DNA of 64,000 bases from Archaeoglobales archaeon. Its GTDB lineage: Archaea; Halobacteriota; Archaeoglobi; Archaeoglobales; Archaeoglobaceae. The stretch is from contig JASFYH010000001.1 in assembly GCA_030055595.1 (NCBI GenBank), forward strand, positions 62,001-126,000, in the 5' to 3' direction. This document shows positions 50,955 to 57,172 of this stretch, in pieces. The notes under the pieces were generated by a model. It was not told the origin of the DNA and did no database searches. It was given only the letters and a program-made list of their open reading frames with translations. Numbering within the stretch: position 1 is the stretch's first letter; each line of letters opens with the position of its first letter. Made by a program: the position numbers and the translations under genes.

Positions 50955-51851
50955 TTAAAACTTTTCTGGAACCTTTGAAGGCAAACCTTTTCTTGCTCCT
51001 AATTCCTGTATGCAAAGAGAGGCAACGTAATTTCCGATCTTTCCGCAATCCTCAATACTCATACCTTTCAAGAATCCATAGAGGAAACCAGCGTTAAAAG
51101 CATCTCCCGCTCCCGTGGTGTCAACAACTTTAACTGCGAAAGGCTTTGCAACAAGCTCTTTGTTCGAAGTTTTAATCCAGCACCCTTCCGAGCCGAGTTT
51201 TACCACCACGATCTGAATTCCAAGTTCTAAACACTTCTCCGCAGAACTCTTATAATCCATACCAAAGATCTTTTCGATCTCAGTTCTGTTTGGCAGGAAG
51301 ATCGTCGTCTTTTTTAGGATCGGAAGCAGTTCTTTTAAACCCCTTTCTGCATAAGGCATCCCAGGATCGAAGCTAACAGCTTCAAATTCGTTAACAAGCC
51401 TCTTCTGTGAGTTAAGAGAATCAAGACCATTTTTACAGATAAAGGAAGTCAAATGGAGAAGCTTAAATTTCTTGGCAAGTTCCAAATCGATCTCTTCGTA
51501 GCGGATCGTGTCATTTACACCGGGATCTACAAGAATTGCCCTATTGCCTCGATCATCAACAAATATAATCGCTGTTCCACTCCTTCCGTTAGCTTTAATA
51601 ACCGCTTTTGTTTCAACCCCCTCTCTTTTTAGATCTTCAAGTAGGATCTGACCCTCGAGATCATTTCCAACTTTTCCAATATAGGCACTCTTGATCCCAA
51701 GTCTTGCAAGCCCTACGATCGTATTCGCCGCACTACCCCCGGGTGAGAGCTGAAGATCTCTAACAAAACCTTCTTCGTCTTTCCCCGGGATCTTGTCAAC
51801 TCGGTAGATCTTGTCCAAGTTCAAGGCTCCAAAACCAATAGCACTACTCAA
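50955..51851 (-). CDS. PfkB-family carbohydrate/nucleoside kinase
   Basis: 298 residues with ribokinase-family features: FGALNLDKIYRVDKIP, the substrate motif LSPGGSAANTIVGLARLG near 39-56 and the anion-hole motif DTTGAGDAFNAGFLYG near 241 containing the base aspartate. Substrate unknown (sugar, nucleoside or ADP-dependent). The start is TTG 51851, overlapping the ferredoxin stop by 8 bases; upstream ATG codons in this frame lie inside the ferredoxin gene. Confidence 0.87.
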   Translation of the reverse strand: MSSAIGFGALNLDKIYRVDKIPGKDEEGFVRDLQLSPGGSAANTIVGLARLGIKSAYIGKVGNDLEGQILLEDLKREGVETKAVIKANGRSGTAIIFVDDRGNRAILVDPGVNDTIRYEEIDLELAKKFKLLHLTSFICKNGLDSLNSQKRLVNEFEAVSFDPGMPYAERGLKELLPILKKTTIFLPNRTEIEKIFGMDYKSSAEKCLELGIQIVVVKLGSEGCWIKTSNKELVAKPFAVKVVDTTGAGDAFNAGFLYGFLKGMSIEDCGKIGNYVASLCIQELGARKGLPSKVPEKF

Positions 51852-52014
51852 GCGTGATCGCCTCGTTTGGGCATACGTCAACACAGCTTCCACATTCAGT
51901 GCAGATCTCAGCGTCAACGCTTGCGTAGTCATTTAGCTCTATTGCTCCCACTGGACATTCATCAACACATGTTCCGCATCCATCACACTTTAGTTTATCA
52001 ACAACCGCTGGCAT
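51844..52014 (-). CDS. 2[4Fe-4S] ferredoxin
   Basis: 56 residues from ATG 52014: two CxxCxxCxxxCP clusters (CDGCGTCVDECP near residues 10-21 and CTECGSCVDVCP near 38-49). Small electron carrier for oxidoreductases. A TTTATAAATA box at 52031-52040 lies about 25 bases upstream, suggesting a leaderless start; the five codons before are probably not translated. It precedes the PfkB kinase in one operon. Confidence 0.92.
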   Translation of the reverse strand: MPAVVDKLKCDGCGTCVDECPVGAIELNDYASVDAEICTECGSCVDVCPNEAITLE

Positions 52015-52095
52015 ACAACTCTTCCGCATTTGCTATTTATAAACTTCTTTCAGTTTTGAAGGTTAGATTTAAATTTGTGAAAAAATACTACACTC

Positions 52096-52818
52096 ATGGA
52101 GTATGCTAAGTTCGGGATCCCGAAGCTTGACGAATACCTTGGTGGAGGTTTGGATCGTAGCACGATCAGTTTGATCATAGGACGGAGCGGAATAGGTAAG
52201 ACAATTCTTGCAGCACAGTGGGCTGCTGAAGGTGTTAGGAACGGTGAAACCGTGATCTACATTTCAACGACTATGAACAAATACAACTGCAAGAATTACT
52301 TGGGTCAGTTTAGCTTCATGAAAGACGTTTACGACAAGATCCACTGGCGTTTCATAAGGGTCGAGCCAAAGTATCTTATGCCAATGACAAAAGAGAAAGT
52401 CAAAGAAGGACTTGATGCAACCTATGGAATGAGTGGTGAGTTTATCGATCGAATAGTTTTTGACTCCTGCACGGATCTCGAGAAGACTCTGGCAGATCAA
52501 GTTCTTTACAGAAGGGCGATCAGGTATATGGCAGATCTTGCCTACAAGTATGAGGTTACCTCGATCTGGGTTGAGGAGGCACCAATGGTGGGTCCGTGGA
52601 GTGAAACCAAAAACTTTGTTGAAACAATTATTTTTATGGATCTACTGAGGATCCCAGAAGGCTATGCAAGAGCTATGAGGATCTTAAAGAAGTATAGAAC
52701 CGCTCACCCCTTGGAGTGGTTCCCCTACGAGATCACGAATGATGGAGTGGTTATAAAGGATGGGTGGTTCGTAAGGAAGGACTATGACTACAAATTTAAG
52801 CCTCATAGAGAAGATTAA
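52096..52818 (+). CDS. KaiC/RecA-like ATPase A (intact P-loop)
   Basis: 240 residues. KaiC-type N-terminus (FGIPKLDEYLGGGLDRSTIS) leads to Walker A GRSGIGKT (K35) and Walker B RIVFDS (D123). The remaining half has helix-rich segments (LYRRAIRYMADLAYKYEV) and a C-terminal charged region. It is a single-domain KaiC relative, related to ArlH and RadB-like regulators. A GATTTAAAT box near 52067-52075 gives a leaderless ATG. First of a four-gene operon; it overlaps the next gene by 35 bases. Confidence 0.8.
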   Translation: MEYAKFGIPKLDEYLGGGLDRSTISLIIGRSGIGKTILAAQWAAEGVRNGETVIYISTTMNKYNCKNYLGQFSFMKDVYDKIHWRFIRVEPKYLMPMTKEKVKEGLDATYGMSGEFIDRIVFDSCTDLEKTLADQVLYRRAIRYMADLAYKYEVTSIWVEEAPMVGPWSETKNFVETIIFMDLLRIPEGYARAMRILKKYRTAHPLEWFPYEITNDGVVIKDGWFVRKDYDYKFKPHRED

Positions 52819-53341
52819 GAGTGCAATAGACAGTGGTGCTGAGATCATATTGGTAAAGGTGGATGCGAAGAGCTACGTTAAGGTTAGCTTAGAGATCATA
52901 AAATTCTTTTCAAGTTTTGCAGATGGAGTCTATGTGACTCTAAATAAGCCTTATTTCAGCTTAAAAAGAATGCTAATGAAAGAGAATATAGATCTCAACA
53001 AGCTTTACTTTATAGACAGCATAACGATGCAAGTCGGTGGGGAAGTGGTGGATGAAGAAAGATGCTTTTATCTGAACTCACCAGATCCCGTTCAGCTACA
53101 GGTTATGATTGAGAGGGCAATGGATCTGATCACTTCGAATAACAGATTCATTTATATCGATTCGCTCTCAACGATCTCTCTATACAAGTCCTTTGAGACT
53201 CTAATAAAGTTTTTAAGGCATATAACAGGCAAGATCAGGCTTCGCGGATTTGTTGGCACAATTTTTACACTCGAAAAAGAAATGGACGAAACTTACTATT
53301 CGCAGATCACGCTTATGTGCGACGAAGTGATCGAAGCATGA
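52784..53341 (+). CDS. KaiC-like protein B, no P-loop
   Basis: 185 residues. It has the late part of a RecA/KaiC fold: alternating strands and helices with a Walker B-like strand (NRFIYIDSLSTI, near residue 122) but the P-loop region is missing: the start enters directly at a strand (AEIILVKVDAKSYVKV). It is likely a non-catalytic subunit. Overlaps gene A by 35 and gene C by four bases. Family close to the DUF835/KaiC-derived archaeal proteins. Confidence 0.7.
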   Translation: MTTNLSLIEKIKSAIDSGAEIILVKVDAKSYVKVSLEIIKFFSSFADGVYVTLNKPYFSLKRMLMKENIDLNKLYFIDSITMQVGGEVVDEERCFYLNSPDPVQLQVMIERAMDLITSNNRFIYIDSLSTISLYKSFETLIKFLRHITGKIRLRGFVGTIFTLEKEMDETYYSQITLMCDEVIEA

Positions 53342-54072
53342 TCCCCACAGGCATAGAATTCCTGGACAAGCAGATCGGCGGATTCCATGAAGGGCTCCTG
53401 ATCTTATATGAAAATAGCGGTGCGGGAGCGAGAGAATTCGCTCTAACCATGCTCTTAAATAACTCTAAAAAATACGATTTGAATTATGTGGCAATTGCAA
53501 AGACTGTGGAGGAGGTAAGAAGGGAGATCAGACTCTCCTTCCCTGAGAGCAAAAAAGAAGCAGAGATCAATATCATAAGTCTTGCAGAGTATTATTTCAA
53601 AGATTCCATAGTGCCAATAAAATGGATCTCTGAAAAAGGTTTGTTAGGAGTTCTGAGAGAAGAAAAGAACGTGCTTTCAAAACTTGTTGAGGTCTTTGAG
53701 AACGTTAAGGGCATCGTTTTTTTGGACTCGATCACGGATCTTGCAAGGGTTTCAAGAAAGTTAGGCTGGGAAGCTCTAATAGACTTGCTCAAAGGGTTTA
53801 AGGCGGTCTGCTTAAGAAAAAATATACTCCTTTTGGCTTTGCTCACGTCAAATGTGCTTGAAAGAGGTCTTGAAGAGGAGCTTTTTGAAACTGCGGACGG
53901 GGTTGTTGTATTTGAATGGATCGCTGAAAAAGACACGATCTCAAGGTGGATGTTCTTCAGAAAAATGCTTGGAATCATGCCGATCCTTGAAAAAGATAGG
54001 GTTTTGAAATACAGCACGAAGATCGATCCGGCACAAGGTTTTACTATCTCGAGGATCATGAGAGTCCTATGA
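53338..54072 (+). CDS. KaiC-like protein C, degenerate P-loop
   Basis: 244 residues from ATG 53338. It starts like KaiC (MIPTGIEFLDKQIGGF) and in the P-loop position reads ENSGAGAR, so lysine and threonine are replaced by A31 and R32. Walker B IVFLDSITDL is kept near residue 120. The rest matches the KaiC fold. ATP binding in the classical manner is unlikely, while the fold is intact. Overlaps gene B and gene D by four bases each. Confidence 0.78.
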   Translation: MIPTGIEFLDKQIGGFHEGLLILYENSGAGAREFALTMLLNNSKKYDLNYVAIAKTVEEVRREIRLSFPESKKEAEINIISLAEYYFKDSIVPIKWISEKGLLGVLREEKNVLSKLVEVFENVKGIVFLDSITDLARVSRKLGWEALIDLLKGFKAVCLRKNILLLALLTSNVLERGLEEELFETADGVVVFEWIAEKDTISRWMFFRKMLGIMPILEKDRVLKYSTKIDPAQGFTISRIMRVL

Positions 54073-54749
54073 GGCTTTCTACTGGGATCGTGGGCTTAGA
54101 CGCAATCTTGGGCGGTGGAATCCCTAAAGGCTACGTAGTTGCTGTAATTGGGAGCTATGGAACAGGAAAAACGACCCTCGGACTTCATTTTATCTACGAA
54201 GGGCTAAAAAATGGAGAGAGCGGTATAATTCTGAGCTTTGATGAGGATGAAGAAAGCATTCTAAGAAATGCGAAAAGTATTGGATTATCTCTTGAAAATT
54301 TTAAGAATTTACAGATCATTCGCTTAGAAGCTTTAACGGTTAAAAAAAGCTTTGAAAGGATCGAAAGTGAGCTTCCCGAGCTTATTAGAAACTTAAATGC
54401 GAACAGAATGCTTATTGACTCGATAAGCGTTCTCGAGACGCTTTTCAGTGATCACGAGCGTTATCAGATCCTCTCTTCGATGAAGAGGATCATGAAATTT
54501 TCCGGGGTTACCGCAATATTCACAAGTGAAGCGGATAAGTATTTGCCAACCGCCTCAAAGTATGGGATCCTTGAATACATTTGCGATGGAATGATCTGTC
54601 TGAAAATGATCAGAAAAAGTGAACTTGATGAGCCTACGCTTGGACTTGAAGTTGTCAAAATGCGGGGAATAAAGCACTCAAGAAAACCAAAGCCCTACAT
54701 GATCACCGAGCGGGGAATTGTTGTTTACGAAGAGGCGGAAGTTTTTTGA
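54069..54749 (+). CDS. KaiC/RecA-like ATPase D (intact P-loop)
   Basis: 226 residues: LSTGIVGLDAILGGGIPKG then Walker A GSYGTGKTT (K34), LSFDEDEESIL (typical KaiC acid pair), Walker B RMLIDSISVLE and a C-terminal segment VVKMRGIKHSRKPKPY of the KaiC family. Probably the active partner of the quartet. Last gene of the operon; a T-rich tail follows. Confidence 0.85.
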   Translation: MRLSTGIVGLDAILGGGIPKGYVVAVIGSYGTGKTTLGLHFIYEGLKNGESGIILSFDEDEESILRNAKSIGLSLENFKNLQIIRLEALTVKKSFERIESELPELIRNLNANRMLIDSISVLETLFSDHERYQILSSMKRIMKFSGVTAIFTSEADKYLPTASKYGILEYICDGMICLKMIRKSELDEPTLGLEVVKMRGIKHSRKPKPYMITERGIVVYEEAEVF

Positions 54750-56161: not shown

Positions 56162-57172
56162 ATGCTGGGTATAAATCCTACTTTGATCGTTAGAGAGAAG
56201 CCTTATAGCAAGGAAGAGCTGATGGAAGCCATAAGGCTTGCGATCTCTGCAGAGCTTGACGCGATCAATCTTTATGAGCAGATGGCAAAATTTAGTTTGG
56301 ACGAGAACTGTAGGAAGATCTTTCTTGACGTTGCAAGAGAAGAGAAAGCTCATGTCGGAGAGTTCACCGCTCTTCTTCTCAGCTTAGACTCCGAACAGGT
56401 TTCAGAGCTGAAAGATGGATTTAAAGAGGTTGAGGAAAAAACCGGGATCAAGACCGCTTTAGATGGTGGTGAGCAGGGATATTTTGCAACTCTTAGTAAC
56501 GCATTTATGGAGGGTGTTGCAAGGGCAAGAAGACTTTCAAATTTCCTTTCGAAGACCAAAGTGTCCGCACAGTCCTACAGGGTAGACGTAATCTCTGGGG
56601 AAGGAGAGATAAGAGTATTAAAGCAGGAATTCAAAGCAATTCCGTTGATCACTCAGAAGTTCCTTGTGGGAATTAGGGAGATCAGCGATGGGAGCTTTGA
56701 TCCTTCAATAGCGGTAAAAGCTGGAGAAGTGCTTGTTATGGCAGAAGAAAAGCAGATAATAAAAGGTTTTACAGCGGGTAAAAAGATGAAGCTTGGTAAT
56801 TGGGAAAAAACAGAGGACTGTATAGATGAACTAATGAAGGCAATGAGAGAAGTTGCAAAATCCTCTGCCGGACCTTATGCGATCATCCTAAGCCCTGAAA
56901 GATTTTCTAAATTGCTAAAAGTGCATGAGAAGGGAGGAAAAATGGTTATAGAGATCCTGAGGGAGATCTTTAGTGGGGGCGTAATTGTAACTCCCGCAGT
57001 AGAGGAAAAAGTGATCGTTTTTGCAAATTCTCCGAGCGCTCTCGATCTCGTTGTTGGTCATGAGCTCGAACTGAAAGAGCTTGGACCAGAAGGGGACAAC
57101 ATAGCATTCTTGGCAATGGAAGCTCTTGATCTGAGGCTCAAAAATCCAGAGGCGGTCGTGGTTATGGAGTGA
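56162..57172 (+). CDS. Encapsulin shell protein fused to ferritin-like domain
   Basis: 336 residues. Residues about 15-105 are a ferritin-like helix pair with iron ligands E31 (AISAELDAINLYEQM) and E61/H64 (REEKAHVGEF). From about 130 the chain is an HK97-fold encapsulin shell (QSYRVDVISGEGEIRVLKQEF, LSPERFSKLLK, SALDLVVGHELELKEL). The pattern matches the Pyrococcus furiosus particle protein, where the cargo is fused to the shell: an iron store or oxidative-stress nanocompartment. A GGAAAAG precedes ATG 56162. The next gene (ASCH) starts on its stop codon. Confidence 0.88.
   Translation: MLGINPTLIVREKPYSKEELMEAIRLAISAELDAINLYEQMAKFSLDENCRKIFLDVAREEKAHVGEFTALLLSLDSEQVSELKDGFKEVEEKTGIKTALDGGEQGYFATLSNAFMEGVARARRLSNFLSKTKVSAQSYRVDVISGEGEIRVLKQEFKAIPLITQKFLVGIREISDGSFDPSIAVKAGEVLVMAEEKQIIKGFTAGKKMKLGNWEKTEDCIDELMKAMREVAKSSAGPYAIILSPERFSKLLKVHEKGGKMVIEILREIFSGGVIVTPAVEEKVIVFANSPSALDLVVGHELELKELGPEGDNIAFLAMEALDLRLKNPEAVVVME

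What the first reader, a model, noticed from the sequence alone, without database searches (positions are those of the whole stretch)
52096..54749. Four tandem KaiC/RecA-like genes alternating active and dead P-loops
Four overlapping genes encode KaiC-like domains. The first and last keep Walker A (GRSGIGKT, GSYGTGKT). The second lacks the P-loop altogether and the third has ENSGAGAR with the lysine lost. All four keep a Walker B-like IDS or LDS strand. Stoichiometric co-translation of two catalytic and two dead protomers suggests a hetero-oligomeric ring with defined composition, a form not described for KaiC, RadB or ArlH as far as I know.
Basis: partly seen in the sequence, partly recalled or inferred. 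Interest (0 to 1): 0.72.

Follow-up and report, generated by a model that had tools for sequence, protein, structure and literature searches.

The report
Active–dead KaiC gene team in archaea
Four overlapping genes in an Archaeoglobus-like microbe encode relatives of the clock protein KaiC, only one of them with a complete ATP-splitting site, and the broken third copy turns out to be inherited almost without exception together with that intact partner across a whole archaeal phylum, which suggests that dead and live copies work as one complex.

Summary
In detail: four overlapping genes (A-B-C-D, 52096-54749, +) encode KaiC/RecA-fold proteins. A and D have Walker A; B and C do not. B and C are confidently RecA-fold in AlphaFold models and all four genes are conserved. 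Corrections: the order is intact-lost-lost-intact, not alternating. A lacks KaiC's catalytic glutamates, so only D has a full site. B lacks both the P-loop and the C-terminal finger strands. The cluster is nested: A occurs only beside B, B only beside C, and C almost never without D (126 genomes with both, 5 with C only, 1 with D only, of 295). C and D co-occur even in 43 genomes where they are unlinked. The four-gene form is confined to Archaeoglobales; B-C-D and C-D versions exist, so a fixed 2+2 ring is not supported. Outside Archaeoglobales, C-D lies back-to-back with PilB3/PilC-type pilus motor genes. Best reading: D is the ATP-using KaiC protein and C its obligate pseudo-ATPase partner, with a degenerate nucleotide site but a retained finger lysine; they form a heteromeric ArlH-like regulator of a type IV pilus motor, with A and B as Archaeoglobales additions. 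The complex and the pilus role are inferred, not shown.

The parts
52096..52818 (+). Gene A: KaiC-like, P-loop intact (GRSGIGKT), catalytic glutamate pair absent
   Evidence: PF06745 1.1e-26; 9/9 homologues keep GxxGxGKT and have TT where KaiC has F-E-E; 22 of 59 Archaeoglobi genomes, each time next to B where B was scored
52180..52203 (+). Walker A of A (GRSGIGKT)
   Evidence: sequence, alignment A2
52784..53341 (+). Gene B: P-loop-less KaiC/DUF835-like (iKaiC-type), 185 aa, also lacks the C-terminal finger strands
   Evidence: Pfam weak hits; AF2 pLDDT 91.7, top PDB match FlaH/ArlH 4yds; 28/28 close relatives are adjacent to C
53338..54072 (+). Gene C: pseudo-ATPase KaiC-like protein, degenerate P-loop G[A]G..EF, finger lysine K209 kept
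   Evidence: 0/39 homologues have GK[ST], 39/39 keep the first G and F, 36/39 keep K209; AF2 pLDDT 92.7, top PDB match PH0186
53410..53439 (+). Degenerate Walker A of C (ENSGAGAREF)
   Evidence: sequence, alignment A7
53962..53964 (+). Codon of C K209, aligned with the KaiC inter-subunit finger lysine (K-x-R motif)
   Evidence: profile alignment to KaiC, column count
54069..54749 (+). Gene D: complete KaiC-like ATPase (TIGR03880 KaiC_arch_3), Walker A, catalytic D/E-E, Walker B and KMR...H finger
   Evidence: TIGR03880 6.3e-85, over cut-off; 14/14 homologues keep all motifs
54150..54173 (+). Walker A of D (GSYGTGKT)
   Evidence: sequence, alignment A4

Best explanation
D and C are an old, obligate pair of KaiC-family proteins. 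D binds and hydrolyses ATP (inferred from motifs). C has the same fold but no usable nucleotide site; it keeps the finger lysine, so it can sit beside D in a mixed ring and complete or tune D's ATP site in trans (inferred). D-C then acts as an ATP-dependent switch on a partner motor, as ArlH does on ArlI. The partner is most likely a PilB3/PilC-type IV pilus motor, whose genes lie back-to-back with C-D outside Archaeoglobales (linkage shown, interaction inferred). In Archaeoglobales two more KaiC-like proteins were added to the operon: A, which should bind ATP but lacks catalytic glutamates (as ArlH is reported to bind but not hydrolyse ATP), and B, an iKaiC/DUF835-type module that probably feeds in a signal or acts as an adaptor rather than a ring protomer. 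My estimates: C-D physical partnership about 0.75; pilus-motor role about 0.45; both together about 0.4.
For: C and D co-occur in 126 of 295 phylum genomes; 5 have C only (one genus), 1 has D only (D at a contig edge). 43 of the 126 have them unlinked, so the coupling is not simple hitch-hiking. C has lost GK[ST] in 39/39 but keeps GAG..EF (first G and F 39/39), Walker B D (38/39) and K209 (36/39); methanogen-type C even shows K-x-R. D keeps every motif in 14/14. C-D gene adjacency in 83 genomes. 45 of 49 genomes listed with a close PilC-type protein have that gene within 6.5 kb of C, next to a T2SSE ATPase with the PilB3_C domain (1.8e-12). KaiC families were noted near VirB11/TadC operons in Methanomicrobia (PMC4858521). 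ArlH: KaiC fold, binds but does not hydrolyse ATP, hexamer, stimulates ArlI (PMC8978795). Foldseek: B's best match is FlaH/ArlH and C's top five include it.
Against: No complex was modelled or measured. In Archaeoglobales the cluster is not next to pilus genes, and genus mates that lack A-D still have PilC-type proteins (G002, G006, G007). In the 42 haloarchaeal-looking genomes C and D are not near each other, nor, in the loci of the two such genomes inspected, near the pilus genes. Five genomes keep C without D. Conserved neighbours in methanogens also include LonB and TldD/PmbA, so the locus may have another role.
Confidence: 0.42

Rival explanations
1. One reading: A, B, C and D form one hetero-oligomeric ring of fixed 2 ATP-binding + 2 dead composition, made stoichiometric by co-translation.
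For: Overlapping genes, all RecA-fold, conserved order A-B-C-D in Archaeoglobales. A heteromeric RecA-like ring exists: Elp456 (PMC5286394), and Elp456 chains are among B's fold matches.
Against: Relatives have B-C-D (Geoglobus-like, Ferroglobus-like) or only C-D. B lacks both the P-loop and the finger strands. A lacks catalytic glutamates. C and D are unlinked in 43 genomes.
Confidence: 0.15
2. The cluster is an archaeal signalling hub not tied to pili: D is a KaiC-type switch; A, B and C are sensors or adaptors for two-component or transcriptional output.
For: KaiC-like ATPases are proposed as signal hubs in archaea and inactivated KaiC domains (DUF835) are fused to receiver domains (PMC5847659). 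One B-like gene in a methanogen follows a receiver-domain gene (L112). Haloferax KaiC homologues CirA/CirD affect motility and cell shape (PMC13286277).
Against: No kinase or receiver gene is adjacent to A-D in Archaeoglobales; the repeated neighbour outside is a pilus motor.
Confidence: 0.3
3. B and C are decaying duplicates of D with no present function.
For: P-loop lost in both.
Against: The degenerate motif itself is conserved across a phylum; dN/dS about 0.05; C is co-inherited with D; confident folds.
Confidence: 0.02

Closest known systems
KaiC-family single-domain ATPases of archaea, NCBIfam TIGR03880 (KaiC_arch_3)
   Same: D is over the curated cut-off (284 vs 249 bits)
   Different: A (78 bits) and C (no hit) are not members; the family model says nothing of an obligate inactive partner
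ArlH (FlaH) of the archaellum
   Same: KaiC fold, works beside a T2SSE ATPase and a T2SSF platform protein; binds ATP without hydrolysis (PMC8978795), as A is predicted to
   Different: A to D all score far below the ArlH cut-off (best 52 of 215 bits); here a multi-protein set with dead members
Inactivated KaiC domains (iKaiC), DUF835 / DUF7504
   Same: B is P-loop-less and hits DUF835 8e-7 and DUF7504 3e-5, both below gathering
   Different: B is stand-alone, always next to C, not fused to receiver or PAS domains
Elp456 (Elongator subcomplex)
   Same: Precedent for a hetero-hexameric RecA-like ring of different subunits (PMC5286394)
   Different: Eukaryotic, tRNA modification; only a fold-level match

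Membership tests
TIGR03880 KaiC_arch_3 | Score above curated cut-off 249.45 bits | tested here: met
   D 284.3 bits; A 77.8 bits fails; C and B no hit
KaiC/RecA ATPase (PF06745) | Score above gathering 26.6 bits | tested here: inconclusive
   A 94 and D 195.8 pass; C 24.7 and B 19.8 fall just below
KaiC/RecA ATPase (PF06745) | Walker A GxxxxGK[TS] | tested here: inconclusive
   Met in A (9/9) and D (14/14), not met in B (0/29) and C (0/39)
KaiC/RecA ATPase (PF06745) | Catalytic glutamate pair after beta-2 | tested here: inconclusive
   Acidic residue plus invariant Glu in D 14/14; TT plus hydrophobic in A 9/9
KaiC/RecA ATPase (PF06745) | RecA fold | tested here: met
   B and C modelled, pLDDT 91.7/92.7, best PDB matches FlaH and PH0186
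ArlH | NF052589 score above 215 bits | tested here: not met
   D 51.9, A 34.8 bits
ArlH | Encoded in an archaellum operon with ArlI/ArlJ | tested here: not met
   No T2SSE/T2SSF gene found in the window; C-D neighbours elsewhere are PilB3/PilC-type
DUF835 (iKaiC) | PF05763 above gathering 33.1 bits | tested here: not met
   B 29.3 bits, profile positions 55-124 of 136
Hetero-oligomeric RecA ring | Mixed ring observed | not testable with these tools
   no multimer prediction or biochemistry available

The most novel reading that the evidence does not exclude
A phylum-wide obligate heteromer of an active KaiC (D) with a conserved pseudo-KaiC (C), in which C supplies a finger to D's ATP site, acts as the ArlH-equivalent switch of archaeal type IV pilus motors; Archaeoglobales enlarged it to a four-protein KaiC assembly.
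Probability: 0.3. Interest if true: 0.75.

Novelty: new variant of a known kind. Interest (0 to 1): 0.55.

Why it matters
KaiC-like proteins are abundant in archaea, and in most cases the partner they act through is not known (PMC4858521). Near-perfect co-inheritance of one inactive and one active KaiC gives a concrete partner pair to test, in a tractable host (haloarchaea carry both genes), and may supply a missing regulator of archaeal pilus motors. It also offers a natural test of how pseudo-ATPase subunits tune RecA-type rings.

Tried and rejected
Makarova et al. 2017 (KaiC hubs, mBio 01959-17) is not held, so prior description of this exact cluster cannot be excluded. A tree meant to place A among paralogues failed to collect the paralogues (one only); it shows A as a separate long-branch clade of unknown origin. 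Neighbour clustering in Archaeoglobales gave no pilus or kinase gene next to A-D. Haloarchaeal 'HTR-like' naming could not be traced in the library. The sigma-70 type promoter scan found nothing above chance and does not cover archaeal promoters. hhalign linked B only weakly to D (9% probability) and moderately to C (66%), so B's KaiC kinship rests on fold and Pfam.

Full report
What is there. The window comes from a member of the Archaeoglobaceae (relatives are titled Archaeoglobaceae, Archaeoglobus, Geoglobus, Ferroglobus). Four genes run in one direction: A 52096-52818, B 52784-53341, C 53338-54072 (the GTG at 53317 listed by the ORF finder is probably not the start; ATG 53338 gives the classic ATGA overlap with B), D 54069-54749. 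A and D are clear KaiC-family proteins; B and C are only weakly recognised. D belongs to TIGR03880 by its curated cut-off. The genome has other PF06745 proteins elsewhere, mostly on other contigs.

Motifs. Counted over homologues: Walker A is complete in 9/9 A and 14/14 D, and in 0/29 B and 0/39 C. C has a fixed relic, G-A-G-x-x-E-F, in place of the P-loop. Aligned with KaiC, D keeps the acidic catalytic pair (D/E plus invariant E59), the Walker B Asp and the KMR...H inter-subunit finger. A keeps the lysine and usually the histidine of the finger but has T-T plus a hydrophobic residue where KaiC has its glutamates. C keeps the finger lysine (K209, 36/39); in methanogen-type C the motif reads K-F-R-G. 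B ends before the finger strands. So only D has a complete site; the order is intact, lost, lost, intact.

Folds and selection. AlphaFold2 with session alignments gives B pLDDT 91.7 / pTM 0.87 and C 92.7 / 0.90. Foldseek against the PDB puts FlaH/ArlH, SSO2452 and KaiC on top for B, and PH0186, SSO2452, KaiC and FlaH on top for C. Elp456 chains also appear for B. A, B and C show dN/dS near 0.05 against the nearest relative by YN00; for D dS was saturated and dN is low. B and C are therefore maintained proteins, not debris.

Distribution. Within Archaeoglobi, A was found in 22 of 59 genomes, each time next to B where B was also scored; B in 28 genomes, always next to C. Geoglobus-like and Ferroglobus-like loci mostly have B-C-D; others (G014, G015, G154, G184, G225, G230, G253) have C-D only. 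Five genomes of the window's own genus lack all four. Over 295 genomes of the phylum, 131 have C, 127 have D and 126 have both. The exceptions are five genomes of one genus with C but no D, and one fragmentary D at a contig end. By my count of the tables this is 57 genera with both, one with C only, none with D only. The score cut-offs were chosen at gaps in the lists (C: 1e-40 against 2e-24; D: 5e-69 against 2e-55), and one genome (G168) has a D-like protein at 2e-55 without C. The Fisher p-value ignores relatedness and should not be read as a probability.

Neighbourhood. In Archaeoglobales the flanks vary by genus (PfkB kinase, cytochromes, peptidase/regulator pair). Outside, the C-D pair is divergently placed next to a ~550-aa T2SSE ATPase carrying the PilB3_C domain and a ~645-aa T2SSF protein. 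Of 49 genomes listed with a close PilC-type protein, 45 have it within 6.5 kb of C. Makarova et al. 2016 already noted that KaiC families arCOG01172/01173 could be co-transcribed with VirB11/TadC operons in Methanomicrobia (PMC4858521). Whether those arCOGs are C or D could not be checked.

Mechanism. Shown: folds, motif losses, co-inheritance, linkage. Inferred: that C and D touch; that C's finger serves D's site; that the complex regulates a pilus motor. The analogy is ArlH, a KaiC-fold protein that binds but does not hydrolyse ATP, forms hexamers and stimulates the motor ATPase ArlI (PMC8978795). A may behave likewise. B most resembles the inactivated KaiC (DUF835) modules of archaeal signalling (PMC5847659).

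The stronger and more general result is the C-D partnership. Inactivated KaiC domains and heteromeric RecA rings are known separately, so I file this as a new variant of a known kind. The 2017 survey of KaiC-like hubs could not be read and might already list the cluster.

Noticed in passing
window 56162-57172 (+): 336-aa protein that looks like a ferritin-like domain fused to an encapsulin shell protein (recognised by eye, not searched).
   Followed up: no
L089, L091-L093, L095, L098, L099, L126, L127: In methanogen-type genomes the C-D / PilB3-PilC locus is flanked by a conserved LonB protease and a TldD-PmbA peptidase pair, in some also a BofA-like membrane protein.
   Followed up: partly
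L050, L056, L104, L122 (Archaeoglobales); L109, L110: A winged-helix regulator plus membrane metallopeptidase-like pair (BlaI/BlaR-like by eye) recurs beside D in some Archaeoglobales and beside a B-like gene in an unrelated family.
   Followed up: partly
L061:1965-4843: A Woesearchaeota contig has a double-length KaiC-like protein followed by two P-loop-less B-like proteins, an independent active/dead KaiC set.
   Followed up: no
window 50955-52029 (-): A PfkB-type sugar kinase overlapping a small ferredoxin-like gene lies divergently upstream of A; the kinase is conserved there in ten related loci.
   Followed up: no
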